This document shows positions 6,001 to 56,066 of a stretch of 64,000 nucleotides of DNA, piece after piece. The stretch covers positions 15,121,501 through 15,185,500 of the forward strand of contig OY727093.1 in assembly GCA_963402885.1 (NCBI GenBank), written 5' to 3'. The position numbers and the translations under genes are program-made. Origin of the DNA: Antedon bifida. Its lineage: Eukaryota; Echinodermata; Crinoidea; Comatulida; Antedonidae. Numbering within the stretch: position 1 is the stretch's first letter; the number at the start of each line of letters is the position of its first letter. The notes beneath the pieces were generated by a model. It was not told the origin of the DNA, ran no database searches, and was given only the letters and a program-made list of their open reading frames with translations.

Positions 6001-7344
6001 AATTTTCAAATCGCAATATGTAAATCGTAATAGTAAAATAAAAGTAACCCACTTTTTGAGTTTTTCGTAGTTTCGCGCAAGAAAGTCGAGATATTCACGA
6101 TTTTGTGCAAGACATCACAATATGAAAATATCGCCCGGTGAGATCAACAAACAACGAAAAAGTTACATACATGGCACCGATAGGCCTAGAAAAACAAGTT
6201 ATCACTATCGAAAAATGTATTACATTTTATACATAAATCTTACATCAATGTTTCGCCAAAATCCACATAGTAAAGACACCAAGCCTAGTTAACCAGGCCT
6301 AAAGTTGGTCCGGAACCGTTTTACGACTAGGCTAGCCTAGGCAAGTACTACTAGCCTAGTAAACTGATGATAATATCCATACCATTTCTAAACAAGTTTG
6401 TTGCGTGAAACTCGGTCACTTACAGTGAAACACCAAAACAATTAGGGTATACATACAATAATAAAATTAAAGACTTCATATTGAAAATGACTCCATTATT
6501 TGTTATTCAGATAACAAACAAACATGCCAATCCACAAAAAAATTTGTAATGCTTCGGCGGGAAGCTAGTGCGCGACCGATACACAATGCGCCAAGCCATC
6601 GCTCTACGCGCTACTGTGATGCGCGGTGTATGTTATTTCGACAGGTACCATTTTGACAGTCGTTCGTAACCAGATTAGTCACTTTCAAATAGTAAAATAT
6701 TGACGGTCCAGACCAAATATAGTGTCCATATTTATAGTATATACCAATAATTAACCTATCTACCGGATTTCGTAAAAAAATGCGAAACACGAAGGTCTTC
6801 GTGTATGGCAGTCAAGCGTTGTGTTTCCAAACACAAAGATCTTCGTGTTTGGCAGTCAAAGTGTTAAAGAATCAAGGAACTTGTCAATGATTATCAATCA
6901 TACTGATAATCATAATCATACTGATATATGAATAGTACTAACAAAAAGTATTTTTTTTAGAACCTTGTTGATTTGGCTGGTTCTGAGCGAATAAATGAAA
7001 CAAAGGCAGAAGGTGTGCGTTTGAAAGAAGCATGCAACATCAACAAGAGTTTGTTTGTATTGGGACAAGTGATCAACAAGCTTAGCTCTGGATCAGATTA
7101 TATTCCATTCAGGGACTCAAAGCTGACTCGAATCCTGCAACCATCACTTGGAGGCAATGCAAAGACTGCCATAATTTGTACTGTAACACCGGCAGCCATC
7201 GATCAGACACATAACACACTTCAGTTTGCCAGTCGGGCTAAGACAATCAAGAACAAACCAGAAATGCATGAAATCTTGTCTGATGAGGCGTTGCTGAGAC
7301 GATACAAAAGTGAAATTGAAAACCTCAAAAAACAAATTGATCAG
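70..7344 (+). CDS. CENPE: CENP-E exons 1-9: kinesin motor domain
   Basis: These exons encode residues 1-357, a full N-terminal kinesin motor. In order: beta-1 strand [20 protein letters not shown], the P-loop GQTSSGKT (86-93), [13 protein letters not shown] in the middle of the domain, switch [10 protein letters not shown], switch II DLAGSER, the [19 protein letters not shown] helix region, then TLQFASRAK near the neck. The [14 protein letters not shown] and [14 protein letters not shown] stretches match CENP-E better than other kinesins as I recall them. All nucleotide-binding residues look normal, so the motor should be active. Intron 1 (117-1286) and intron 8 (5094-6960) each hold a copy of one TTAA-flanked transposon. 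Confidence 0.95.
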
Positions 7345-10300
7345 GTAATTCATTTTTTAAAAAAGCTTGTATGGATTGATAACTTCAATCTTAACATATG
7401 ATGTTTGTTTCATCATTTGCATATATTATTATTCTCAGTTTGATAAACAGGATAAACTAAAAGATGGTTGGGAATCTCTAGAGAATGAAAAGAGACAAAT
7501 GGCAGAGGAAAATCAAAAACTGATTGAAGCTAGAAATCGTTTGGAAACAATGGTTATATCAGGCCAGGGTGAATCCATTCCGAAGAGCAAGAAAAGGGTA
7601 AGATTTAAAAGAAACAATTGATACCATACTGAAAATAGAAGCCACCTCTGACCCAAAATGATCAATTCCCAATACATTTCAGTTACCTCACTCCCTATAT
7701 ACTTTACCAAATTTAATTTTCAAGGGTGGGTTGTCCTTCCTGAGTTAGTAAGGTATAATGCATACATTTTGTAAAGCTTTGTTTCTGAGGTAACTTAATC
7801 ATATAAAGAATTGTAAAGGTAAAAAATTGTATTATATTACTGTCATAATTACAAAAAGTTGTAAAGATTTTGTTATTTAGGAGGAGGTTTTAGATTTTTT
7901 GTTTGCTATGTGAGCCAGTTTCATTGTAGAAAATGTTTAACATACTCTAAATAAAAGAAAATACTTTTTTCATTTTGTTTTTAGCCAAACCGTCGTGAAA
8001 CCTGGTGTCCTGGAACAAGAAAGTTTCCTCTTCTTGCATCAGATCCTATTGCTGCAGCCGCTGCAGTAGCAGCAGAGGTTGGATCATTTGATGCCGCTAC
8101 CACTTTTAAATTTTCTCCAAAAGCAAAAAGTAGCATAAGCTCTTGCAGTGTCAGCAGTGATGGTACGTTATATTTTGCTTTTGCACAAACTTGAATTAAT
8201 AAATGGAAAAACATACATACTATGTATTAAAAAATACACAAAAATGATAACATGATTGACCATTTTAGGTGTACATAAAATCTGGTTAATGTCATATCAG
8301 GGTATGTCAAATGTTCTACTGTATTTTGTATTGACAGAATTTTCAGACAGCAAGTTTGAAAAGTTTGCTGAAGATTGTTCAGGCTTTTCGTCTGATGAAT
8401 CTATACCCAAAAAGAAACGACGACGGGCTGTGCATTTTTCTGAAATACCACCTATAATGGATGTTAGTATTTCTCATGCACAAGAAATTGGCTGTCAGAC
8501 AGAGGTAGGTCAACCCAATCTAAATTACTTTCAGGTGTAAAATTTTAGTTACGGCCTTCAACACACATAATGTATTTAATTAAGATGTGTAATTTTCCCT
8601 CTGTGTCCTCAAACAAACTATTCATACGGTTTTTTACCTCTATTTTCTTTTTATAAAGCTCTGTCTACACTATCAAACCATATGTGACAACAAAATGTGA
8701 TGTGAACATATATGGACATGATGATATCATATCATTACCATATTTGGGCACCTCACACTTGTTTTATAGTGTAGACAGAGCTTAAATCTGTCACTGGCAA
8801 CAATTTTTTCAGCCAAATATTTTTATTTCTATATATTTACTTGTAGAGTGTAATAGATCATGATGTGGCAAGTTCACATGAAGAGCTAAAAGAGTCCATC
8901 ATTATCTGTGAGGCACTGATGCAGGAGAAAGATGAACTAAAAAGTGAAAATGAATTAATGCACCAACAGATATTGCAATTAAAAGAAGAAAATCAAGAGA
9001 TTAATACAAAATACATAACAATGTAAGTTTAAAATTTAAAACAATGTAATTATAAATATTGCTGTATGTTTTACTCTTCTATCAATTGTGCATTCCTCTG
9101 TTACGAGTAGTTGAATCATTACAGTTTCGATGTACGCAAAGCAGAAAAACTGTTTTGATTATACATCTATGGCACCATGCTTACATTATCGGTTCCGTTC
9201 TTATGGCACTTTGCGTTGCGTTTACATTGCATCTATGTCCTTGCTTTGTGTCCTAGTGGAAACCAAGCTTTATCATGCATGATAATGTTATTGTTGATAT
9301 TTATAAATTTAATAAAAATAAGAAGTATACAGTGTTTATGTTGCAGGAAGCTCCCTCTCAAATTAAGTCTTTATTATTTTTTATCAGTAATAATCAACTT
9401 TTTGTTTTCTTGAATTACAAAGTATTCTTTTGTAATATGATTATACTATTTATCTTTGGAAATGATTTAATGGCAGGGAAATGGAAGGTAAAAACGTGAA
9501 GAAGGAGCTAAGTCAACTCACAGAAGAATTCATGGAATTGAAAGAATTTACAAGTATTGAACAAGAAGTTACTGATACTCACTATAAAGATATTGAGGTA
9601 TTATATAGTTTATATTTATTATTTATTCATACTCAAGACCAACCAATTCTGGCTTATGAGTGAACATTATAAACCATTTTAAAAGTTAAAAACATACAAA
9701 AATGAATACAATACAGTATTTACATCCTTAGAAACATTATACAACCTGTTGATATTTAAATGTCATACTCTAATGGAGTAAAAGATTATATATTTATTAT
9801 TATATTTATTCCATTTTTTTTTTCCCTAGATAAAACATCAATCAATCGTGAAGGAACTTAACCAAACAATTGAAGAAAAAGAGAAGGAAATTGGAAGACT
9901 TAGAAGATCAATCTGTATTCCTATACCTTTACAACCTAGTTCTGATCAGGTAATAATCCACATATGTTTTTGAGTATGTGAACTCCCTGTTAATAAATAT
10001 GATATGAAACATTTTAGTTAGTCAGGGCTTGTCATTGTCCAGACCTAGAATTTGCACAACTGTTTTTAAAGAAATTGAGTGAAGAAGCGCATCACAATGG
10101 CCCAATGAATTAACATGACTTGTTCCTAAGTCGTATGTGCAACAAATCGAAAGATCCCTATTAGTTTATTGACTTTTTCATTTGTTTGAGTATTTTTACT
10201 TTTATGAATCCTCTTATAGCTTTATGTTTGAATGTCGTCTGTATATTTTTTTGTATTGTTTATAAGAGGGCGTCTTCAAGTCAGCTGTACTGCTGCAGTA

Positions 10301-13300
10301 CAGCTGTTAGAGCTACCCTTGTAAAACAAAGTTTAATTACCTTATAGTGCATGCTTTCATTTTCTTTTATTTTTGTGACAGACTGGAAATGAAGAATCTT
10401 ATCAGAAAATTAAGGAACTGGAAATGAGTTTAGAAGATGCTGAGGTTGTTCTAATGGATACCAACAAAGCATTATCTGAAATGAAAGACATTAATGTGAT
10501 ATTAGAGAAAGAGATGGTAAGGAACAATGTACAATAAAGATAATGCTAATTACAATTTATTCAGTACCTAGTTTAGTATAATCTGTCTATCCTAGGATTG
10601 TTGGCAAGTACACATTCCCATACACTTATTTAATAAAGTCTAAACCTCTTTAAATAATTCTCTTAAATAATACTATAACTTTATAATTATACTGGTCTCT
10701 TAATAATTAATATCATTTTATACATAGGAAAGTTTAAAAAAAAGATTACAGCAACTGGAGAATGAGAAGTCCGACTTCCAGGTTAGCATAGATATTCAGA
10801 AGGATAAGAGTGATCGTATGTGTGCTGAATTAAGAACAGAATTACAAATGACCTACCAAGAACTTGCTCAGGTCAAAGGTGAAGAAGTTCATATGCCAGA
10901 AAATACTCTACCTTCTGTACAAGAATTACACAAGACTATTGAACGGTAAATATATATAAACTATGGAAGATCTATTTAGTTACAAAAGTATTTAATGTGT
11001 TACTTATAAAGCCATGTCTTGTTGAAATATAAATTTAACATTTTCTTTTTAGTCTGACAAAAGAAAGTGTAACTTTGAAAGAAGACCTACAGTTAAGCAT
11101 TACAAGTGTAAGTTTTCTTGATACCGTTACCACATTTGTTGTTTTTGGTCATGCATTAATAAACTGAGATAATCAAATATAGAGATTTGATTTTGCAGAG
11201 TGTTGAGATCCAAGAAGATCTTATTAACTGTCAAGAAGAATTGGAACAATGTTCAAACAAGTGCAAGAAATTAGAGACTGAAGTGCTAACCCTCCAGGAG
11301 GAACTGGAATGTTCCAGAAATGTATCAGAAGAAAGAGATCCTCAACCTGATGTAAGCAACCTACAAGATCAAGAGATGCATACACAAGAGATCAAAGCAC
11401 TTAATGGCAAAATACTGGCTCTTCAAGAAGAACTGGAATGTTCCAGAAAGGCAACAGAAGAAAGAGTTACTCAACCTGAAGTAAGCAACATACAATATAC
11501 TCAAGAGATGCATACACAAGAGATCGAAGCACTTAATGGCAAAATACTGGCTCTTCAAGAAGAACTGGAGTGTTCCAGAAAGGCATTAGAAGAAAGAGTT
11601 ACTCAACCTGAAGTAAGCAACATACAAGATAGTCAAGAGATGCATACACAAGAGATCGAAGCACTTAATATAAAAATACTTTCCCTTCAAGAAGAACTGG
11701 AGTGTTCCAGAAAGGCATCAGAAGAAAGAGTTACTCAACCTGAAGTAAGCAATATACAAGATCAAGAGATGCATACACAAGAGGTTGAAGCACTTAATAG
11801 CAAAATACTTTCCCTTCAAGAAGAACTGGAGTGTTCCAGAAAGGCATCAAAAGAGAGAGTTACTCAACCTGAAGTAAGCAACCTACAAGATCAAGAGATG
11901 CATAAACAAGAAATCGAAGCACTTAATGGCAACATACTTTCACTTCAAAAAGAACTGGAGTATTCCAGAAAGGCATCAGAAGAAAGAGTTACTCAACCTG
12001 AAGTAAGTAACCCACAAGATAGTCAAGAGATGCATAAACAAGAGATCGAAGCACTTAATAGCAAAATACTGGCTCTTCAAGAAGAACTGGATGGTTCCAG
12101 AATGTTGGCAGAAGAAAGAGGTAATGAAATGAAAACAAGCAAAATACAAGATATTCAAGAGATGCATAAACAAGAGATCGAAGCACTTAATAGCAAAATA
12201 CTGGCTCTTCAAAAAGAACTGGAGTGTTCCAGAGTGTTGGCAGAAGAAAGAGGTAATGAACCTGAAGTAAGCAACCTACAAGATCAAGAGATAAATAAAC
12301 AAAAGATTGAAGCACTTAACAGCAAAATACTAGCTCTTCAGGATAAACCCCAGCAGAAAGAGGAGAATGCACATGAAGAAGAACTAGAGATTGTCAAGAA
12401 TATGGAAAAAAGGACAACTGAGGACAATTTGACAGTTTTAATGATGCAGGAAACTCTACAGGCACATGAAAAAGAGTGTGAAACTCTGAGGATTACCATA
12501 GTTTCTCTTCAAAAAGAAATTGAGCAACTGTCTTCTAATGATACGGAATTACAAGAAAAGGAAGCATGTGATATAGATGGAAGCAAGCAGGGGACTAGTA
12601 ACATGGTTCTTCATAAAGAATCGGATCACACTGCTGCAGAAAAGGAACATACAGACAAAAAGTCCAACATAATTTGTAATTTGCAAATGCAATTGAATGT
12701 GAAGACAAATGAATGTGAATCTTTAAATGAAATGGTGGTCTCCCTTCTTGAACAACTAGAAAAAGACAAAGAGTCTAAAGAAAGTGCTGAGGAGAGTGAC
12801 TTAAAAGTCAAAGTTATAGAGCTTGAACGAAGATTGGAATTAAGTAGAGATTACGAAGTAGAACTTGAATCTCAAGTAGAAAATTTAAGAGAACTAACTA
12901 TGATCAATGAATATGAAAATCCAGAAATAAATTTAAAGGAAACGTTAATGGATGTTGCTGAGAATAATCCAGAATTGATTCCAGAAAGGGATACTACTTC
13001 AGGTAATAAATGCTCAGAAAGAAAAGATATCAGTTTAGATGAAAGTGAGAATATAACATCAACCAGTACGGCTACAGTTGAATATAGTGAAAACAGGAAA
13101 GAGAATCTTGAAAAAGTTACTGAATTACAGGGTCGACTAGAAGAGATGACAGATTTACTGACAGAAATGTCGCAAAAACTTGAGCACACGGAAGAGATGC
13201 TGAAATTCTCAAAAGACTATGAAGTTGAACTTGAAAGGCAATTGGAAGAAGCAAATAAGAGCAAGGAACAGCAGATAGAAATGTTTAATAGGGAACAAGC

Positions 13301-16300
13301 TGAGACAGAATCTAAATTGGCTGATATGGAAACCAAAGTATATGGCTCAGAGGCTAGTTATACTACTATAGAGTCAAAACTGACTGATGCAGAAGCCAAG
13401 TCTGTTTTTATGGAGTCTAATATAAAGGAAACCCAGGCGAAGTTTGCTGAAATGGAATCTAAGATTGTTGAATTGAAAGCAAAGCTTGCTGAATCAGAGG
13501 TTAAAGTTGAACAATGGAAGGTTGAAGCGGAAAGGAATAAACGTTTGATTGCAGAACAGAGCATGAGCACTGATATGATGACATCACAGTAAGTTTTTAT
13601 CTAATTATGAAATAGTATTGAGCATGTATGCTTTTTAGCTTTAAAATATGGTTCTTGAGACTACAGTATCTCCTAATACAGTATCTATATATTATTTACC
13701 TCCGCCAAGAAGGTATATGTAATCGATCGCGTGTGTTTGTTTGTCTGTTTGTTTGTTTGTCTGTTTGTTAGCAGGATTACTCAAAAAGTAATTACAAGAT
13801 CTTTACCAAAATGAATATACAGATAGATATGTGGTCAAGGACCATTCCATTAAATTTTGCGACCATGGTCCCAATTCTGGACCACTTTTTAGAATACAGC
13901 TTTTCAGACCTGCGAGTGTTAAAAGATAGGACAGAATTTTTCAAAAGCCAGCGAGCAATCTTAAAGTAACAAGTAAACTGAAATTGCTTTTTCTCAAGAA
14001 CTACTTGTCCAAAAAACTTCATTTTTGTACAGGAGGCAAGAGTTATAATTTGTGATTTGTAATTTTAAAATATAATTCGATTTAATGTGCACCTTTTTTG
14101 ATGCGAGTAGTTTTAAAAACTTTCAAATTCACTCGTTTGATTTTCGCGTTGCTTTTCTATTGTTAGTCAATTGAAGCTATTGTTAATTGAAAGGCTTGTT
14201 ACATAACCATTACACCAAACTCGCATACACATGTTTGTAGTGAAATTAGCCTAAATCACAAACAGCACACAAATATATATATATATATATTTTTTCCCGG
14301 AGAAATCTTATGTAGGAGAATTTTACAGTAGGCGGAGGTATGCACTCTCGGAGTGGCTTTCTAGTTACAACTATATTCTATGATAATGTTGAAGAAAATG
14401 TTTTTCATATATCCTGTTACAGACTTGAATCGTACAGACAGACTGCTGATCGTGCAAAGGGAGCACTTTTGGCAGAGAGCAACCGGGAGCTTGACCAGCA
14501 ACGAAAGATTGAAACTCTTGAAAATGCCCAGAAAGAGTCTGTGGCAGTGTTCCAACAAGCCGGTAAAGAAAAAGATGAGATTATTGCAGGTCTGGAGAAG
14601 AAGACCAAAGATCTATTAACCAAGTTAAGACAAACAGAAGCAGAGAGTGATCAAGCCACCCACAGGTCATTGCAGATGGAAAGAGAATCCCAGGTATAAT
14701 TATTTATTACAATTGTAAAATAGAAAACAGATTTAAATTGAACAAAGAAAAAAAATACATTCATGATACAAAGAAAATACAATTAAAAAATTTACAATAA
14801 AAAATACAATATTATATTTCATCTTCTGTACCAGCCATGATGTAATATTTACTTTTCTGTTTAAAGGACCTACGTGATCGTGTAAAAGAGCTGGAGAACC
14901 ACACCTTTGATAATCGCCAGTTAACATGCAAACAGGATATGGATCCTGCTAAGCTTGCACAACGTTTAAAACAAGTGGAATTCAACCTTGATATAACGAA
15001 GCAAAAGGCAGATAAATTTGAGAAAATAAACAAAGAACTTAAAGGTTAATAGTATATAAATAATGTTTTAAAGCTCAGGTACAGGCATGAATTTTAAATA
15101 TAATATCTGGTTAATTGTATATAAATCAAATATTTGTAACAGAAATCAAGACGAAAAAACATGAATTTCCCTTAATATGGTCAAATACAAAATTTGGCAA
15201 AATTCTGCCATAAAAACCAGGAAGCCTTTTTTTTCAGTAGTTAGGTAGTTTAACCTAATGTAATAACATATCTGGTGACTCCCTAGAAGGTGAAAAAAGA
15301 TGATGGATATACGGTGGATAATTTTTGCTATAGCATGAAAATAAAAATCTGAAGTTGAATAAAAATATCAGAAATGTAGAATTCTAGTTAAATTACATAT
15401 ATTTAGTCATCTGTTAACATTTTTTACCACACCGTTTATTTTTCATAGCTTTTTAAAATTCCTCTCTATTTACAAAATTTGTGTACAAAAGAATAGAGAT
15501 TTTACTGTGTAATTTGAACTATCCCCCCACTGATAAGAAAGTGCTTATTGTCAACAAGCTTGTGTAACACAAATAAAAATCCTAATAATTATGAAACATA
15601 GGGGAAATCGATAATTATTGGAATGTATGATCAATAGAAATTTTTTGCCCGCACCTGGCCTTTAATAATACTGTACCACATAAATGACTATAATTAGGCA
15701 AAATCTGAACTTTAGTAATCCATTGTTGGATGTTGAATGAGTGTGATCCCACTTGCCAAATGTCGAACCCAGACCTTGTGATACTTTATATTTCTGCTTT
15801 GATTATACATTTAACTGATTTAATTTAATATTTATTACTATACTTTATTTTACTGAATATGGTGCATACTGTAAAGCAGAAGACTAGATTGTTGTTTCTT
15901 CTTGCATATTTCTCAAACATTTTTTGGTTAAATTAACATTCCTGCCTTTGCTATTATTGGATTTATTATTTTTCTTTTCATTTTCAGACTCAACTAAGAA
16001 ATTTGAAGCCAATGAGTTCAAAGCAAATGATCTTGAGAAACAACTAAGGGATGTCAACTTTGAATATGAGCGTCACCGCACACAGTATAATCAGTTGAAG
16101 TCTCGTTATGATAACATCGTAGTTGAACTAGCAGATATCAAACACAAACTGGCTAAATCGGAGATGAAAAATGCGGGTATTGATACTGATAAAATGAGAA
16201 ATGACCTTTGCACTTTTGAGAAAGAGAGCATTAAACTGAAAGAAAGAGTCAGCTTAAGTGATAAGAAAATTCTACAGCTTGAGAACAGGATTGCAGTAGA

Positions 16301-36438: not shown

Positions 36439-36662
36439 AGTTATCCGCAACGAAGTTGCAGGATAACTCTTTGTGATTGTACGAAATCAACATCTTTTTT
36501 TTTAGTTATCCGCATTCAGCGGATAACTCCTTGTAACTGTCCTGTTTCATCATTTTTTTTTTTTGGTTATCCGCAACTTTACAAGTTGCGGATAACCCTT
36601 GTGATTGTAAATATCTTTTTCATCTTCTTTGTTATTAGTTATCCGCTTAGTAGCGGATAACT
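36439..36662. repeat. four stacked terminal hairpins
   Basis: Four hairpins with the same outer stem, (A/G)GTTATCCGC...GCGGATAAC(T/C), lie at 36439-36468, 36504-36528, 36565-36597 and 36637-36662. Each is followed by CTTTGTGATTGTA or CCTTGTAACTGTCCTG and a T-run. The same hairpin recurs once at 44201-44230 straight after a CTAG end. I read them as successive left ends of the Helitron-like units to the right. Confidence 0.7.
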
Positions 36663-39600
36663 CCTTGTAATCGTCCTGTTACTTTTTTTTTTCTTATTTC
36701 TTTCTCCCCCATTTTTGTGTCTCACGTATCTCAAAAACTTGTAAACATAACATTTCATAACTTTGTCAACATATGGGCATTTACGTGAAATTGTGCACCT
36801 CCTATTTTTGAATGACGTCAGAGTTGCGCAACGTGACTTACGTGCGATTTTATGATTTTTTATGATTGATCATAGGCTAAAAACCAAGCATAATTTTGTT
36901 TTGACACTTTGTGAAAATTTAAGTCATATTAAGGGCAAACTTTTTGTGGATTAAAAATGCCATGTTTTACAAGACGTTACGCGCGCACACGCATTTCTCC
37001 TCTATTTTTGTGTCTCGCTTATATCAAAAATGTGTAAACATAACATTTCATAACTTTGTCAACATATGGGCATTCACGTGAAGTTGTGCACCTACTATTG
37101 TGAATGACGTCAGAAATGCGTAACGTGACTTACGCGTGATTTTATGAATTTCCCATATTTAATATAGATTGAAAACCATATAACAATTTAAGTTGAAACT
37201 TAGCAAAAGTTTAATTTATATTTTGCGCTAACTTTTTGTGCCCTAAAAATGGCATGTTTTACACGAAGTAAGGCGCGCACGCGCATTTAAAATTCAAAAT
37301 GCGCAAAATTAATTTCTAATCAAGTTTCTACGCTGATCATGACATTTTGAGCATGTCAATAATTCCCACGTGCGCGAACAATTTTACGCGCGTGGTCCGC
37401 ACGTAGCGCTAAAAACATCTTTTTTTTGCGTGAATTATGTTTTTCCAGCCTTTTATGGTGATTTTATCAAATTTTATAACAATTTAGACTTAAAATTACG
37501 TCATACGAGCACGTCGAATTGTACAATTTGTGCGTGTTTTTAATGAAAAAATTCAAAAATTCGTAAAAATTATGCCTTTTTTTAAACAATCATAGATTCT
37601 AAACTACGAGGTAAACTTTTTTTGACTTACATATTCTGGAAGGTGATGAGTTGTAGATATCGGATCATTAATCAATATGGCTAACCGGACATTGTGACGT
37701 CATCGTATGGCCACACGAATGTAAAATATATGATTTTTGTCTCTTTCGTTACTGCTCATCACATTAAATGGAGCGCATCACGCTTATCTGTATTCCTTTT
37801 TCTCCGAGATTTTTAATATTGTCTAGGTCAACCAAATATCTTATGCATGAGTTAAAAATATTTAATTTTTATGACATCATCATGCCTAAAAATTTAAATT
37901 ACGTGTATACAGATTATACTGTGTACTTTAAAATGTATATGACACAAAATAGACAGAATTTAGCACTAACACCATATCATATTCTTCAGTTCAGGTCATA
38001 ATGCCATAATCTTTTTCTGTGTGCAACATTCCAACGTTTGACGTGCACGTGGCGTTTGTCGAGCGGATAACTAACTCGTCAAAGTGACGAGTTTCATGTC
38101 TAGTTCTTCTTTCTTTCCCAGATTTTTGTGACCAGCATATCCCCTATTACTTGTGAACATAAGATTTTATAACTTTGTCAAAAGATTGACCTGTAGCTGT
38201 AGATGTGCAAGAAACTTCGTTATATGACGCGATTTTATGAATTTCAATGATTGATCATAGATTATTAACCAAAAGTTATTTTGTATTGACACTTGGTGAA
38301 AATTTAAGTCATATCATGGGCAAACTTTCTATGGATTAAAAATGGCATGTTTCACAAGAAGTTACGCGCGCACACGCATTTAAAATTGCAAAATGCGCAA
38401 AATTAATTTCTAATCAAATTTCTACGCTGATCATGACATTTTGAGCATGTCAAAAATTCCCACGCGCGCGAAAAATTTTACGCGTAAGGTGCGCACGGAG
38501 CATGAAAATCATGTGTTTTTCTCTTGAATTATGATTTACAGCCTTTCCTAGTCAGTTTAAAAAAGATTAACATCATTTCAAATTAAATGACGTCATACGA
38601 ACACGCTGATTTAGACCATTTGCGCGCGTTTTAGTTGAAAAAGTTATAAAATATTGTCAAAATAATGCCAATTTTGAATCTATTATAGCTCTTAGGGATC
38701 AAAGGTTACCCCAATTTTTTTAACTTATTATGTAAGATGATAAATTGTAGATATGAATTTATGCAGAATTTTTACCTCTCGGATGTTATGACGTCATCGT
38801 ATGGCCACACGAATGTAAAATATAGGATTTTTGTCTGTTTCGTTATTGCTCATCATATTCAACAGAGCGCATCTCGCTTATACGTATTCCATTTCCCCCG
38901 AGATTTTAGTATTGTCTACGTTTATCAACTATCTTCCGTATGAGTTAAAAATATTTTAATTTTTATGACGTCATCATGTCTAAAAATGTAAATAACGTGG
39001 GTCACTTATTTTCATCTTTACAGTAATTTTCAATCTGTTATAGCTCGTCAGAATAAAAAGTGATAATCATGATTAAAACGTTTTCTGGAAGCTATTGGAT
39101 TGTAGATACGAATTCATGTTAACATTTTGGCAATCGGATGTTGTGACGTCATCATATGGCCAGTTGAATAAAAAAGTCGTATTTTCATATTTTGCGTAAT
39201 AGTTAAAAGGGTGCGCATCTATATTTTACGTATTCAAATTTCTTCTACACGTTAATATGTTGTTCCTGAGATAATTTCCTTCTGAAATTGCTATCTAAGT
39301 GTTTCATTTTGATACCGTCGCCATGTTAAAAATTGGAATAAATGGTGGGTCCCGTAATTTCACCTATTCTACACTGTATGTAATGTATACAAATTATACT
39401 GTTTGCACTGTATATGACACAAAATTGACAGAATTCAGCACTAACAGCATATCATATTCTTCAGTTCTTGTCATAATGCCATAATCTTTATCTGTGTGCA
39501 ATATTCCTACATATGACGTGCACGTGGCGTTTGTCTTTGTGCGGATAACTAACTCGTCAAAGTGATGAGTTTCATGTCTAGTTCTTCTTTCTTTCCCGGA

Positions 39601-42035
39601 TTTTTGTGACCAGCATATCTCTATTGCTTGGTAAAAAGATTGACATTGAAGTGTAGATGTGCAGCCAAGCTTTTGGACGATGTCAGAGCCGCGTTGCGTA
39701 AGTTACGCGCGATTTCATGATTTTCTATAACAGATCATAACTGTAGAACTAACAAATATTCTTTCATGAAACTTAGTGAAAACTTAAGTCATATCAAGGG
39801 CAAACTTTCTATGGATTAAAAATGGCACGTTTCACATAAAGTTACGCGCGCACGCGCATTTAAAATTTCACAATGCGCAAAATTAATTTCTAATCAACTT
39901 TCTACGCTGATCATGACATTTTGAGCATGTAAAAAATTCCCACGCACGCGAAAAAAATTATGCGTAAGGTGCGCACGGAGCATGAAAATCATTTTTTTTT
40001 CTCTTGAATTATAATTTTACAGTCTTTCCTAGTCATTTTAAAAAAGATTGACATCATTTCAAATTAAAATGACGTCATACGAACAGGTTGATTTAGACCA
40101 TTTGCGCTTAGTTGCGAACGTTTTAGTTGCAAAAGTGACAAAATATTGTCAAAATTATGCCTATTTTTAATCTATTATAGCTCCTCAGGATCATCCATGA
40201 CCCCCATTTTTTTAATTTAATATGTAAGCAGATATGTTGTAGATATGAATTCATGCAGAATCTTTACCCCTCGGATGTTATGACGTCATCGTATGGCCAC
40301 ACGAATGTAAAATATATTGTCTGTAAAAATCAAAGATTTGGTGGCAGATGTAAAAAAATGGATTTCGCTCAAATTTTTACCATGAATAGACATTTCAATA
40401 AAAAGCATATCTACAACATTCATTTTAATTTTTAGCCTCCGTTGCCATGACAACGGTCAATTATCCAAATTTTGATGTTTTTGCCATTTTTCACAGATTT
40501 TCTATAGTGAAAAAGTACAAACTTGTATACTTATTTTAACCAAAAATACTTACAGTATACAGTTTTTGTTTATAGCAGTGTAAACAACATGTATTGAGTT
40601 CCATTTAATGTAGAAAAAAAAAATTTACAAAATGGAGTTTGGTTGATACCATTATTTTAAAAAGGGGTGTTTTTAAAAAATATTTTTTTTATAAAAGTAT
40701 ACCTCATAAACGTACCTATAACTTCCAAAGTGGTGTTTTTATATCAATGAACTTTTGTAATTTGATAGTCAATAGGTTTCTCAACAATAATCACGAAAAA
40801 AACACTGGGGTAAATTACGTACATAGGTTTCGTGTTGCCAGGAAAATACGAAAAATACAAAAAAATACAAACAAAATATCAACAAACAAAACGCATGAAA
40901 CACAATTTAAATATGGCTAATACAATAATAAAATGTATATGTGGCTTGTCATAATGCTACTAGAGTCATACGAATAGTTTAGATAAAATAGGAGAATGTA
41001 TTGCCAGGTTTATTTCAATTAATTGCCAGAAAAACAGTATTTTGCATTGAAATATTTAGTTGATGGAAAATAATGTTAAACTTTGAAATAATTGCGTCAA
41101 TGGTTTTTATAAATTTTTACATCTATTTTGTGTAAAGAGATACAGAAAGACCTCCCAAAAAATCTGACCTTGTAAATAGGTCATTTGAGGTCAAAAGGGG
41201 TCAGAATGCAAAACAGGACAGGTCCCCACTTTACTACAACTATTAATGTTTGATCAAAATTTACAAGATAGTTCATAAAAAATTCTCAACAATTTTCATT
41301 TTTTACCTATAGTGTTACCTTAGCAACCATTTCTATATGTAACTAAGGAAACTAATTTTGAAAAAAACGTAAAAAATGGCGTTTTTTATGAATACAAAGA
41401 ATTTATTGCATTTGTAATTTTTCTCAATTTTACTTCTACTGCATTCTAATATTCTTAAAGTGATGACAAACTTGCCCTTGTAAATTCATTCATTTTGAGG
41501 TCAAATGAGGTCAACATTTTACCATAGTAACTGTTTCTATGCGAAAATATTTTTTCTACATAGTTTTACATTTCTACTACCAAATTTACTTTAAATACTG
41601 AATCCTAATAATCCCAGAAAGAAAGTCTTGACAAATCTGAATAAAGGTAAAAAAATGACCTTTAGTGTTATCTTAAACCTGTTTACGTAACTAAGGATAA
41701 TTTTGTTAAAATATAATATGGAGTTTTCATGAAAAAAAAAATTATATTTTACATATTGAGGTCAAATGACATCAACATTTTACCTATAGTGTACTGTAGC
41801 AACTGTTTCTATACGTAACTAAGTACAATATTTTTAATATGGGGTTTCATGACTACAAACAATTGGTTACATAGCTTTACTACCTTTTCCCAAATTTACT
41901 TACCTACTGAATCCCAGAAAATGTCTGACCTTGTGAAAGGGTCATTTGTTGGGTCAAATTATGTCAAAATGTATTATTTATGTTATCTTATAACCTGTTT
42001 CTATGCGTAACTAAGGATAATTGTTTTTTTAAATA

Positions 42036-42613
42036 CAATTGAACCTCCCGTAAGTGGCCATCCTCGGGACCTGGAAAAGTGGCCGCTTACGGGCGGTGAC
42101 CCCTTACGGGAGGTTCTGCCGATAAAGGGCCAAAATCACGTATTATGACTATATACGATATTCTTAACGAAAAGAGCCTCTCAATTTTCCAGCTAATTGT
42201 ATTATTATTTATAATCAGGTGGTTTAGTATTTTTTAGCATTTTTAGACAAATTTTAAAAGCTTTTATCATATGAAAAATGGTCGGTCAAAATCTGTGTAG
42301 TTTTCTCATCTCTTCACAGTAATGTTTTTAAAACCGCTTCGAAATAAAGCTAATATATAAAGAAATACAATAAACATGGACCTCTAATTCATAGGTCCAT
42401 GCAATAAGTATCACATTTTTGGGTGGCCGCTTACGGGAGGTCATTTATCATACAAAAAATCTCATGTTTAGTATAAAAAGGTGCCCGCAGCTGCTTACGG
42501 GAGGTGGCCGCTTACGGTAGGTACCAAATGCACTAATTAGATAGGAAGAACAAACAGGCTTTTCAAATTGCGTCCGTTAAGGGAGGTGGCCGCTTACGGG
42601 AGGTGCCCGCTGT
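42036..42613. mobile_element. TIR element with CCGCTTACGGGAGGT repeats, nested in the foldback
   Basis: The left edge CAATTGAACCTCCCGTAAGT and right edge GGCCGCTTACGGGAGGTGCC are roughly inverted, and GTGGCCGCTTACGGGAGGT recurs about five more times between. 578 bp, non-coding, superfamily unknown. Confidence 0.6.
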
Positions 42614-43143
42614 AAATAAAAGTCCTTACGAATATGACCTTGTGAAACGGTAATTTGAAAATGCAAATAAGGCATGCCTGCTAATAATCTACAAATTTAA
42701 ATTTGTATAAGATAAGTATGAAAAATCTAAAGAATATCTCAATTTTAGTTACCATAGTAACTGTTGCTATGCATAACTAAGGGAAATTAAATAATTATCA
42801 GATAATTATTAATTAATACTGAATCCAACCATCACAGTAAAAAAAATATAGAATTTAAAGCCAATATTTAATATAAAGTGTGATATGTTACATGCTGACC
42901 TTAAATGAAATGAAATTTCACATCAGGGCTTCAATATTTGTTATGTAGCATTAACATACCTGAGTATATCATTGACTTTTGATTGGTTCAATTTTGGGGA
43001 GGGGAAAGTGGTGGATCCAGGAGGTTGGGCGATGGTAGCGGCAGTGTGTGTGGTGCTTGAATGCATGCATTTGACACTCTATAGTGGATGATCGACCAAA
43101 GTGTTGCAGTTTATCTTTTTGTGGCTATTGTCGGGGTAGGGAT

Positions 43144-43163
43144 GGGGGGGGGGGGGGGGGGGG
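43144..43163 (+). repeat. run of 20 guanines
   Basis: An uninterrupted G run within a GT/GG-rich patch (43120-43195), able to form G-quadruplexes; its length in the assembly is unlikely to be exact. Confidence 0.85.
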
Positions 43164-46100
43164 TATGGGTGTTAGTCGAAAGTGGTGGTGGATGGGCATG
43201 TGGGATCTGCTTAGGTTAGCAAGTAAAAGAAGTAAAAAAATGAAAGAGGAGCTTCAAAATAAGAGAGGAGTAATCTGTTGCAAAGATTAAAATTCACAAC
43301 GATCTGATAATTTATTCAAATTTCCAGAGGATATAACCTATAAAATGACATTAAAACTGGGAATTACAGAATCTATAATTAAAAATAATGTTTTTTTTCT
43401 CACAACACAACTAGAACTATATAAAACATTAAAAATTTTTCTGACCAAAGAGTTTCAAATCAGATAATCAAAGAAAATAAAATGTTTTTACTAATATACC
43501 ATGTTTTTTTTTTATATAAAAATGCCTATGTTTCTCGCAACACTGCTTGTAGATTTTTAAATTACCCCAGTATTTTATTTTAGAAATCAATTATTAAACC
43601 TTAGAACTACCTATTTCTAATAAATCAGCTTAAAAAAAACACCACTTTGGGCATTATGGTGAAGTAAAGTTTAGTTGCATTTAACAATTTTAAAAAAGTG
43701 AAAAACACCCCTTTTTAAATAAATGGTATCTCCCAAAGTATGAAATCAAAAATAAAAAAAAAATATGAAACAGGTACACAATGCATTGTTATTATGCATA
43801 CACTAATTATTTTTTATAATTAAATGAACAAAACAAAAATATTGTTCTTCAAAGTAGTACCAATATCCATTTTAAAAAACCTTAAAAAAGGACAAAATTT
43901 GTCAAAAACACAAATTTGGCCGTTGCCATGGAAATATATATGTGAAATAAAAAATACTTCATATTTGATTTCTCTCAACACATATATAGCCATGTGCAAA
44001 ATTTGAAAGAAATCCATTTTTTGAGTCTGCCACTATATTTGATATTTCTTTGATTCTTACAGACAATGGCTCTTAATTCATGTCATAGGATGGCATAATA
44101 ATTGTGGAAGTTCATATAGTTTAAAGTATGTGCATGTTGCATTTGCGCGGATAACCCGAACTCGTCAGAGTGACGAGTTCAAATCTAGTTCTGTATTATT
44201 GGTTATCCGCAACTTAGTTGCGGATAACCCATGTGATTGTAAATATCTTTTTTTTCATCTTCTTCTTTGTTATTCTTCTTTCTTTCCCGGATTTTTGTGT
44301 GTCGCATATCCCCTATTGCTTGTGAACATAACTTTGTATAACTTTGTCATTATATGGACATTTACCTGAAGTTGTGCACCTCCATATTTTGAATGACGTC
44401 AGAGTTGTGCAAAGTGACTTACGCGCGATTTTATGAATTTCAATGATTGATCATAGGATAAAAAATAAAAGTCATTTTGTATTGACACTTGGTGAAAATT
44501 TAGGTCATATCAAGGGCAAACTTTCTATGGATTAAAAATGGCATGTTTTACAAGAAGTTACGCGCGCACGCACATTTAAAGTTTCAAAATGCGAAAAAAT
44601 AATTGACATTTTAAGCATGTCAAAAATTCCCGCGCGCGCGAAAAATTTTACGCGTAAGGTGCGCACGGAGAATGAAAATCATGTGTTTTTTTCTTGAATT
44701 GTGATTTTCTAGCCTTTCCTAGTCATTTAAAAAAAGATTGACATCATTTCAAATTAAAATGACGTCATACGAACACGTTGATTTATACCATTTGCGCGCG
44801 TTTTAGTTGCAAAAGTGACAAAATATTGTCAAAACGTTGCCTATTTTTAATCTATTATAGCTCCTCAGGATCATCCACGACCCCCAATTTTTTTAATTTA
44901 ATATGTAAGCAGATATGTTGTAGATATAAATTCATGCAGAATCTTTACCACTCGGATGTTACGACGTCATCGTATGGCCACACGAATGTAAAATATAGAA
45001 TTTTTTACTCTTTCGTTATTGCTCATCACATTAAATAGAGCGCATCTCGCTTATACGTATTACATTTCCTCAGATATTTTAATACTGTCTACGTCAATCA
45101 ACTATCTTTCGCATGAATTAAAAATATTTTAATTTTTATGACGTCATCGTGCCTAAAAATGTAAATAACGTGGGTCACCTATTTTCATCTTTACAGTAAA
45201 TTTCAATCTGTTATAGCTCGTCAGAATAAAAAGTGATAATCATGATTAAAATGTTTTCTGGAAGCTATTGGATTGTAGATACGAATTCATGTAAATATTT
45301 TGCCAATCAGATGTTGTGACGTCATCACATGGCCAGTTGAATTCAAAAAGTCACATTTACATCTCTTGCGTAAAAGTTCATTGCGTTTAAACGAGAGCGC
45401 ATCTCACTTTTACGTGCCCAAAATTTTTCAAATTTGTATTAATGTAATTAATTAGATAATTATCTTCTAAAATTGTTATTTTATATGTCAATTTGATGAC
45501 GTCATCGTGTTAATAATTGGATTTAAAAGATGGGTCTCGTAATTTCGTCTATGCTACACTGTATATAACATATACAGTGTATTCTGTAAATACTGTAATA
45601 TGCTGTATGCTACATATTAGGTACAATTCAGCACTGTAAACATATTTAATTCATGTCATAGGATGGCATAATAATTGTCGGCGTTCATATATTTTTAACG
45701 TATGTGCATGTTGCGTTTGCACGGATAACCCGAACTCGTCAAAGTGACGAGTTCAAATCTAGTTCTTCTTTCTTTCTGTCATTTTTGTGTCACCCGTATC
45801 TGTAAAACTTGCAAACATAACATTTCGTAACTTTCTCAACATATCGTCATTCATATGAAGTTGTGCAGCGAAGCTTTTCAGCATGTTTACAATTGCACAA
45901 CGTGACTTGCGCGCGATTTTATGAATTTCGCGTATTAAACATAGGTCAAAAACCAAATAACATTTTAAATTGAAATTTTGCAAAAGTTTAATTTATATCA
46001 TGCGCTAACTTTCTGTGGAAAAAAAATTGCGTGTTTTACACAAAGTTACGTGTGCATGCGCATTTAAAATTTCAAAATTAATTTCTAATCAACTTTCTAC

Positions 46101-46599
46101 GCGTTTCATGTCATTTTAAGCATGTCAAAAATTCCCAAATTCCCAAAATTGCTACATGTGCGGTGCGCACGTAGCAATAAAAACATATTTTTTTCGCGTG
46201 ATTTATGTTTTTTTCAGCCTTTTCTAGTAATTTTACCAACTTTTAAACAATTTCGTCTTAAAGTTACGTCATACGAGCACGTCGAATTGGACAATTTGCG
46301 CGCGTTTTTGATGAAAAAGTTCAAAAATTTGTCAAAATTATGCCTGTCATAATTTCTAAACTACACTATCAACTTTTTGTGGATGACATATTCTGGAAGT
46401 CGATGACTTGTAGATATCGGATCATGTTTTAATATGGCTAACCGGACATTGTGACGTCATCGTATGGCCACGCAAATATAAAATTTAGGATTTTTGTATC
46501 TTTCGTCATAGCTCATCACATTTAGTAGAGCGCATCTCCACTTATCCGTTTTCTATTTTCACCATGATTTTGATATTGTCTATTTTTTATTTTTTTATT

Positions 46600-47433: not shown

Positions 47434-47958
47434 CTATTCATTATTTAAGAGTCCAATAACACTTGGAATTGTTGAGGCAGCAAGTCTTTTAGTCCGACAT
47501 CGTGGCACATCGAACTTATTAACTTTACGCAAACACCTTGTCGGCTTTTCTTTTTCAGGGATCCATTCCTTAAAACGATCCGACTTTAGCAGCCCCTTTC
47601 CAAAGTTATAAAGAAGAACCTGACGTCTATGCTGCAATGTCTTTAACTTGAGGGTTTCAAGTGATTTTGCGTAACTAACATAGTTTTGATATCCAATAAT
47701 AAGTTTTACAACACGCTTTTGGATGAATTCAAGTTGATCACTCTGTTTATTGGTGATCGAGCTATGCCAAAGAGGACTGGCATACTCAAGTAAAGGACGA
47801 ATGTATGTTGTAAAAGTGAAAACCAGGTCATCCTTTGGGGCTCCAAAACGCTTCAGAATGTATAGCATATATAGACGACGTGATGCCATGGAAACGACTT
47901 CTTTAATCTGCATGTCCCACTTGAGGTCACTTTGTAGATGCACTACAAGAAGTTTCAC
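47434..47958 (-). mobile_element. CR1/L2-type LINE remnant, C-terminal region
   Basis: A 174-residue frame: KLLVVHLQSDLKWDMQIKEV, ASRRLYMLYILKRFG, then IRPLLEYASPLWHSSITNKQ, SDQLEFIQKRVVKLIIG and a C-terminal PxCRTKRLAASTIPSVI. This is the region after the reverse transcriptase of CR1/L2-like LINEs common in marine invertebrates. The catalytic YADD part is absent, so it is 5'-truncated. Confidence 0.8.
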
Positions 47959-54474: not shown

Positions 54475-54548
54475 GAATGTCTAGCGCCCTCGCACCACAG
54501 GCTGGCCCAAAGTTAAGAAGAACCACAGACCGTGTGTTTCACGGCAAC

Positions 54549-55115
54549 GGGACGATTCGGCCCGGGACGATACGGCCCTGGGACGATTCGGCCCGGGACT
54601 ATTTGGCCCGGGACTATTCGGCCCAGGACGATTCGGCCCTGAGACGATTCGGCACACTTACATTTATCGGCTTTGATGCATTTTATAAGCATAAAATAAG
54701 CTTTTTCCCTCAAACTTTATTTTCAGAGAGACTATGGGGTAGTACTACTAGGGATAAAGATGCAATAATGCAAACATTTAAACAAAAATTGTCGAAAATG
54801 ATCATTTTTTAGTCACGCGAACGATGTAAACAAGTTACGCCCTCTGTTGGCCGCTTGGCGAATGCGCGCACAAAATAAACAAGGTTTTCGAAGTAATAAA
54901 TTGAATATTAAATTACGTTTTTTTAGTAATTTATTATATATATTATATCAACATTGTCAATATTAATAAAATACGTATTGTTAAACACCTTTAAAAGTAA
55001 AAAAAAAATGAATATGAATTTGGTCTAAAGTGAGACGTTTCGGCCCACAAAGTGGGATGTTTCGGCCCAGAAGTGGGCCGAAACGTCCCACTCTAAAAGT
55101 GGGCCGAATCGTCCC
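54549..55115. mobile_element. TIR element with an 18-bp minisatellite at its left end
   Basis: Inverted ends GGGACGATTCGGCCC and GGGCCGAATCGTCCC. The left end is a run of about six ~18-bp units (GGGACGATTCGGCCC with GGGACTAT variants, 54549-54655). The right end carries degenerate GTGGGCCGAAACGTCCCA units. 567 bp; no protein. The repetitive open frames over this run are artefacts. Confidence 0.65.
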
Positions 55116-55972: not shown

Positions 55973-56066
55973 AAGTCGCCCCTTACAAAGTCGCCCCATC
56001 GCAAAGTCGCCTCGACACAGTCGCCCCATCGCAAAGTCGCCCCAACACAAAGTCGGGGCGACTACG
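55973..56066. repeat. AAGTCGCCCC minisatellite
   Basis: Five or so units of 17-18 bp of the form CAAAGTCGCCCC(A/T)..C, ending CAAAGTCGGGGCGACTACG, an inverted half-unit. This design resembles the left end of the element at 54549 and may be one terminus of a similar element; the other was not found. Confidence 0.6.

What the first reader, a model, noticed from the sequence alone, without database searches (positions are those of the whole stretch)
36439..46579. Head-to-tail Helitron-like concatemer about 10 kb long
Unit ends of identical design are followed directly by the next unit, with no host sequence between. Rolling-circle transposition with missed termination is known to give such tandem arrays. 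Most joints lack the left hairpin while one joint (44188) keeps it, giving two junction types.
Basis: partly seen in the sequence, partly recalled or inferred. Interest (0 to 1): 0.7.

Follow-up and report, generated by a model that had tools for sequence, protein, structure and literature searches.

The report
Self-nesting Helentron-type transposons (HINEs)
What looks like a string of transposon copies rolled off end to end is mostly a Russian-doll nest: copies of a rolling-circle-type element have repeatedly inserted into one T-rich spot beside the front hairpin of older copies, here and at many other places in the same eukaryote genome.

Summary
The units are real and abut as described, with two joint types, but the concatemer reading is not supported. 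The "missing" left hairpins are stacked at the left edge (four at 36439-36700); a fifth lies at 44201. Five heads (H) thus face five bodies (B) in the order HHHHBBBHBB, as nested insertion behind the left hairpin gives. Genome-wide, 2034 right ends occur; 585 run into a body and 532 into a head, and 905 head-head joints exist. For one linker type, 46 of 57 paired left and right halves have T counts summing to 10 (at most 38 in 20,000 shuffles). Neighbours are not sisters: in 0 of 44 adjacent pairs is the neighbour the closest relative. Nest-matched halves fit the same subfamily (0 of 10,000 shuffles). Against: 3 of 14 fully flanked arrays have unequal head and body numbers, and one window pair (H2/B2) does not match. 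Structure fits HINEs (non-autonomous Helentrons); intact Helentron-type ORFs exist, but no partner with these termini was found. Helitron self-insertion is already proposed in print; the scale and site precision were not found in my searches.

The parts
36439..36503 (+). H1: left hairpin (head) and left half of the linker of the outermost unit; interrupted after its T9 tract
36504..36564 (+). H2: second head plus left half of its linker (T12 tract)
36565..36636 (+). H3: third head plus left half of its linker, ending GTTATT
36637..38103 (+). H4-B4: innermost unit, head and body uninterrupted, ends CTAG at 38103; carries a 292-nt tandem duplication at 36701-37288
38104..39581 (+). B3: body completing H3; starts TTCTTCTTTC, ends CTAG at 39581
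   Evidence: score 0.73
39582..44188 (+). B2: third body in the row, broken by the inverted-ends element; its start does not match the H2 linker type
   Evidence: (score 0.32)
40317..44066 (.). unrelated ~3.75-kb element with imperfect long inverted ends (TTGTCTG...CAGACAA) inside B2
44189..44200 (+). 12-nt remainder of the H1 linker (TTCTGTATTATT) between two independent insertions
44201..45762 (+). H5-B5: complete uninterrupted unit, second insertion into the H1 linker
45763..46579 (+). B1: body completing H1, 3' part missing

Best explanation
The array is a nest of non-autonomous Helentron-type elements (HINEs). A unit is: T, left hairpin [A/G]GTTATCCGC...GCGGATAAC, a T-rich linker, a body of usually 1.1-1.5 kb, subterminal GCGGATAAC, a right hairpin, CTAG, T. 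New copies insert between two Ts, in the same orientation, into the T-tract just behind the left hairpin of a resident copy, or at a second site at the linker's end (ATT^), or end to end beside a resident copy (CTAG-TT-GGTTATCC). Insertion adds two Ts and splits the resident into a head and a body, so repeated insertion stacks heads on the left and bodies on the right. In the window: H1...B1 came first; a block H2...B2 and the unit H5-B5 inserted into its linker; inside the block H4-B4 sits in the linker of H3-B3. Shown: the anatomy, the joint counts, the T bookkeeping, non-sister neighbours. Inferred: that Helentron Rep-helicase-endonuclease proteins move them, and that the enzyme is drawn to the resident left hairpin, not only to T-tracts.
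For: (1) T bookkeeping: for the linker GATCAATA(T)nCTGTATTATTC the genome has 200 left halves and 183 right halves. Of 95 right halves used, 57 have a left half upstream on the same strand within 12 kb and 2 on the wrong side; 46 of the 57 sum to 10 Ts (shuffle mean 25.4, maximum 38, 20,000 shuffles). Uninterrupted linkers held have 5, 8, 8 and 11 Ts. (2) Nest-matched halves fit one subfamily: mean score 0.742 against 0.565 (sd 0.038) shuffled, 0 of 10,000 (17 pairs). (3) In 0 of 44 adjacent pairs is the neighbour the closest relative; 89 of 90 units with a full-length relative in the sample have their best one in another array. (4) 7 fully flanked HHBB arrays and 3 solo HB units. (5) Of 105 right ends, 41 are followed by a head, 39 by a body start, 2 resume inside a body, 23 run into other DNA. 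(6) 94 of 94 right ends are followed by T and 18 of 18 array left ends, plus the window's, are preceded by TT.
Against: Of 14 arrays with other DNA on both sides, 3 are unbalanced: C1:10305700 (4 heads, 3 bodies and a body fragment), C1:16561300 (about 6 heads, 4 bodies), C13:7907366 (2 heads, 3 bodies). In the window H2/B2 scores 0.32 (true partner rank 16 of 17) and H1/B1 0.48 (rank 9); the true partner ranks first in only 7 of 17 pairs. Head-head joints (905) exceed right-end-body joints (585); calibration (34 of 44 and 26 of 40) narrows but does not close the gap. The head-body order alone is weak (42 of 252 orders of five and five are balanced). 11 of 57 T sums are not 10, and 38 of 95 right halves found no partner in the capped list. 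No autonomous partner with these termini was found.
Confidence: 0.88

Rival explanations
1. Rolling-circle concatemer: missed termination at CTAG writes several copies head to tail, most joints losing the left hairpin.
For: Head-to-tail order, one orientation, and 532 end-to-end joints genome-wide, many of the exact form CTAG-TT-GGTTATCC expected of a circle junction. Tandem Helitron arrays are read this way in print (passages of PMC4067079 and PMC5876387).
Against: Adjacent units are 74-97% alike and never each other's closest relative in 44 pairs; heads are stacked, not lost; left and right halves of linkers complement each other.
Confidence: 0.04
2. Unequal crossing-over or local tandem duplication multiplied units or heads.
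For: Some heads recur at short spacing (for example C1:14027923 and 14028050), half-heads are duplicated, B4 carries a 292-nt duplication, and a run of about nine heads lies near C1:15260000.
Against: Neighbouring units belong to different subfamilies; T-tract halves are complementary.
Confidence: 0.05
3. Some blocks moved as composites: transposition started at an outer head and stopped at the first right end, giving multi-headed single-body elements, as proposed for Fusarium (passage of PMC5148889).
For: Head excess in C1:16561300 and C1:10305700; the 59-nt H3|H4 joint of the window recurs identically at C1:15248852 beside different left neighbours.
Against: The second site ATT^ is used often, so the same joint can arise twice independently; the stretches shared by the two loci are short and diverged (88% over 324 nt).
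Confidence: 0.3

Closest known systems
HINE / DINE-1 (non-autonomous Helentrons)
   Same: 5' subTIR with complementary inverted repeat, T-rich or microsatellite stretch behind it, 3' subTIR 38-60 nt before the end, 3' stem-loop, insertion at TT, Ts counted as part of the element (passages of PMC4067079 and PMC7492417)
   Different: Ends in CTAG; inserts into its own linker on a large scale; autonomous partner with the same ends not identified
FoHeli (Helitron2-type) of Fusarium oxysporum
   Same: Hairpins and asymmetric inverted repeats; self-insertion proposed to explain multiple short 5' termini before one 3' terminus; a tandem triplet in Metarhizium explained as two insertions into the 5' end or as rolling-circle replication (passages of PMC5148889)
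   Different: There a few cases; here hundreds of joints at one preferred position with T bookkeeping
Maize Helitrons with multiple termini
   Same: Nested Helitrons proposed as source of multiple termini; preferential insertion near other Helitrons is reported (passages of PMC3288121)
   Different: Canonical ends (5' ATC, CTAG, A^T target); no single internal landing site described in the passages seen

Membership tests
HINE (non-autonomous Helentron) | 5' subTIR with inverted repeat forming a hairpin at the left end | tested here: met
   (three heads folded as DNA, z -6.7 to -8.9)
HINE (non-autonomous Helentron) | 3' subTIR (GCGGATAAC) about 35-45 nt before the end and a 3' palindrome | tested here: met
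   (one right end, z -4.2)
HINE (non-autonomous Helentron) | insertion between Ts without a longer target-site duplication | tested here: met
   whether the two extra Ts are element ends or a TT duplication cannot be told
HINE (non-autonomous Helentron) | no coding capacity | tested here: met
   no ATG/GTG/TTG ORF of 120 aa or more within 36439-46579
HINE (non-autonomous Helentron) | autonomous Helentron with the same termini in the genome | tested here: inconclusive
   39 Helitron_like_N matches, 11 in open frames of 3000 aa or more; one ORF carries Rep, PIF1 helicase and Exo_endo_phos. Partial flanks of 3 of the 39 show no own head or right end; a separate HINE lies in L080
Canonical Helitron (Helitron1) | 5'-TC start and A^T target | tested here: not met
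   units start [A/G]GTTATCC after TT
Canonical Helitron (Helitron1) | 3' hairpin followed by CTRR and T | tested here: met
   CTAG then T in 94 of 94
Rolling-circle concatemer array | adjacent units are sister copies | tested here: not met
   0 of 44 adjacent pairs

The most novel reading that the evidence does not exclude
The resident left hairpin is a homing signal: the rolling-circle transposase recognises the 5' end of a resident copy as a landing pad and inserts at the Ts on either side of it, so the family feeds on itself, sparing host genes and building multi-headed composites that can move again. Tandem Helitron/Helentron arrays read as termination-bypass concatemers in other animals would then often be nests.
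Probability: 0.4. Interest if true: 0.68.

Novelty: new variant of a known kind. Interest (0 to 1): 0.52.

Why it matters
Tandem arrays are cited as evidence of rolling-circle concatenation by Helitrons (passages of PMC5876387 and PMC4067079). Here such arrays are shown to arise largely by precise, repeated self-insertion, with a simple test (do left and right T-tract halves add up, are neighbours sisters) that can be applied to any genome. It also offers a natural data set for how a Helentron chooses its target: several hundred insertions into one short stretch.

Tried and rejected
Concatemer: rejected as main cause. A tandem duplication across the B4|B3 joint to explain the H2/B2 mismatch: considered from shift alignments, then dropped, because B3 has a 96.3% full-length relative elsewhere; the mismatch stays unexplained. 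Finding the autonomous partner: flanks of three Helentron copies (L061, L080, L081, L085, L086) show none of the termini. Regex parsing of the arrays was too noisy and was replaced by profile HMMs. Rfam: nothing in the window. The first small T-count test on 9 and 11 pairs was only weakly significant (p 0.04 and 0.02), so it was enlarged. In one search I used 99 of 100 listed left halves (one irregular row dropped) and 95 of 100 listed right halves (five beyond the range of the left list dropped); the genome totals are 200 and 183. Pattern counts may count a few places twice (seen once). The T-run background (34 runs of at least 8 A or T in 53,830 nt outside the array) comes from this window only.

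Full report
What is there. The window is C1:15121501-15185500 of an unnamed 315.6-Mb, 27-contig eukaryote genome. Between 36439 and 46579 lie units with a right end made of a hairpin, 5-6 nt and CTAG, ending at 38103, 39581, 44188 and 45762. It did not note that four left hairpins stand in a row at 36439, 36504, 36565 and 36637, nor the ~3.75-kb element with inverted ends inside the third body. With H for a left hairpin (head) and B for a body, the array reads H H H H B B B H B B(truncated). If each new copy inserts just behind the head of an older one, this order results. The order alone is weak evidence: 42 of the 252 orders of five and five are balanced.

Units elsewhere. A full unit (H5-B5) finds many relatives (116 matches, only 26 of 4053 candidate areas scored). 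Genome-wide pattern counts, forward plus reverse: right ends 2034 (control 12); right end followed within 30 nt by a body start 585; right end followed within 25 nt by a head 532; head followed by head 905; controls for the joints 0. On held loci the exact patterns recover 84 of 109 right ends, 26 of 40, 36 of 42 and 34 of 44 of the joints found by profile HMMs, so these are lower bounds, and the gap between head-head and right-end-body joints shrinks but remains. Of 105 right ends in held loci, 41 pass to a head, 39 to a body start, 2 resume within a body and 23 run into other DNA. Self-insertion is thus concentrated at the linker and at unit borders, not spread over the ~1.5-kb body. Runs of at least 8 A or T are common outside the array (34 in 53,830 nt of this window), so T-tracts as such are no rare target; that background rests on one window.

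Test 1, complementary halves. In the linker GATCAATA(T)nCTGTATTATTC, left halves (T run followed by a head) number 200 and right halves (CTAG followed by T run and CTGTATTATTC) 183 genome-wide. Only the first 100 of each are listed; I used 99 and 95. Within 12 kb, 57 of 95 right halves have a left half upstream on the same strand; 2 have one on the wrong side. The T counts of the halves sum to exactly 10 in 46 of 57 (mostly 5+5, 6+4 and 8+2); shuffles average 25.4 and never exceed 38 in 20,000. With a 1.8-kb limit it is 27 of 33 (shuffle maximum 24). Uninterrupted linkers of this type in held loci have 5, 8, 8 and 11 Ts; read with 8, insertion adds two Ts, which may be the element's own end Ts or a TT duplication. 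Inner units of different subfamilies share the same split, which speaks for independent insertions at the same place rather than copying of one composite.

Test 2, subfamily match. Heads and body starts were paired by the nest rule in held loci; each half was compared with uninterrupted units of other loci. Mean score 0.742 against 0.565 (sd 0.038) for shuffled pairs, 0 of 10,000 shuffles as high (17 pairs). The true partner ranks first in 7 of 17. Poor pairs include C1:13180700 (there the parser took a mid-body resumption for a body start), C10:8522197, and two in the window.

Test 3, sisters. Of 91 parsed bodies, 90 have a full-length relative in the sample, and for 89 the closest lies in another array, often 95-99.9% identical. 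In 44 adjacent pairs (23 joined right end to body, 21 right end to head) the neighbour is never the closest relative; two end-to-end neighbours rank second. A rolling-circle concatemer predicts sister neighbours.

Test 4, head and body counts. In 14 arrays with other DNA on both sides, 11 are balanced: 3 solo HB, 7 HHBB, and C1:13180700 with 4 and 4. Three are not: C1:10305700 (4 heads, 3 bodies and a body fragment), C1:16561300 (about 6 heads and partial heads, 4 bodies) and C13:7907366 (2 heads, 3 bodies). C13:7677000 and the window end in truncated bodies. Excess heads fit composites that start at an outer head and stop at the first right end; an excess body would fit loss of a head or a bypassed end. 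These are inferences.

The window nest. H4-B4 and H5-B5 are contiguous. H3 ends GTTATT before H4, and B3 starts TTCTTCTTTCTTTCCC...GTGACCA after the end of B4, the type seen intact at C1:16561300. After 44188 come 12 nt, TTCTGTATTATT, then H5-B5, then TTCTTCTTTCTTTCTGTC: put beside the T9 end of H1 this reads as one linker split by two insertions, so H1 goes with B1, although the body-based score is only 0.48. H2 and B2 do not match (0.32): the H2 linker type goes elsewhere with a CTGTATT...CTGTC body start, and B2 starts like B3. B2 also carries the inverted-ends element and lacks about 640 nt. A later rearrangement or a composite insertion must have happened there; which, I cannot tell. I tried a tandem duplication across the B4|B3 joint and dropped it because B3 has a 96.3% full-length relative elsewhere.

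What it is. Left subterminal repeat with inverted repeat (hairpin; DNA fold z -6.7 to -8.9), a T-rich stretch, right subterminal repeat, right hairpin (z -4.2), T before and after, no ORF: this is the HINE/DINE-1 plan as described in the passages I saw of PMC4067079 and PMC7492417. The CTAG end recalls canonical Helitrons, but the 5'-TC start and A^T target are absent. The genome holds 39 Helitron_like_N matches, 11 in open frames of at least 3000 aa; one such ORF shows Rep, PIF1 helicase and Exo_endo_phos domains, the Helentron make-up. Partial flanks of three copies show none of our termini, so the mover is inferred.

Mechanism. Shown: insertion between Ts, in one orientation, at two sites of the linker or end to end with a resident unit. 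One orientation follows if the target must read T-T on the top strand, since the linker is T-rich on one strand only. Inferred: the resident left hairpin attracts the transposase; a simpler view is that the linker is merely a good T-rich target. The number of linkers is small against the number of T runs extrapolated from this window, which favours attraction, but that is a rough estimate.

Known and new. Self-insertion giving multiple 5' termini is proposed for Fusarium, and nesting for maize; tandem arrays in bat and silkworm are put down to bypassed termination (passages of PMC5148889, PMC3288121 and PMC4067079). My library searches listed no paper whose title or abstract start describes genome-wide nesting at one site with T bookkeeping; subscription journals are largely missing, so this is not proof of novelty. 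I rate it a new variant of a known kind.

Noticed in passing
window 40317-44066: About 3.75-kb element with long imperfect inverted ends inside B2; contains repeated GTGGCCGCTTACGGGAGGT motifs (42042-42610) and no ORF of 120 aa or more. Family not identified.
   Followed up: partly
C1:15259914-15260424 of G000 (L084): A run of about nine left hairpins in a row, far more than bodies nearby; could be a multi-headed element or local duplication.
   Followed up: no
C1:10305700 array (~2272) and C1:16561300 array (~2434): Half-heads: the first ~30 nt of a head duplicated directly before the full head, joined as GGATAATTGGTTATCC.
   Followed up: no
C1:13180700 and C1:10305700 arrays, about 60-70 nt into a body: A third insertion spot inside the body after GAATATATCTTTTT, used in both arrays although the host units differ.
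   Followed up: partly
window 36701-37288: 292-nt tandem duplication (81% matches) of the 5' end of body B4.
   Followed up: no
window 6973-7401 and 11187-13592: Kinesin motor exon (Pfam Kinesin) and a long coiled-coil-like ORF with eight 132-bp tandem repeats (11301-12340). The Pfam enterotoxin match to that ORF has no stretch passing on its own and looks like chance.
   Followed up: partly
window 54548-54653, 55027-55077, 55973-56055: GC-richer minisatellites (CGGGACGATTCGGCC and AAGTCGCCCCATCGCA units).
   Followed up: no
window 47434-47958 (-): ORF of 174 aa next to the right border that looks by eye like the end of a LINE reverse transcriptase; no Pfam hit.
   Followed up: partly
L061, L080, L081 (C11 and C8 of G000): Large apparently intact Helentron-type ORFs with a C-terminal endonuclease domain; a HINE of the present family lies beside one of them (L080).
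   Followed up: partly
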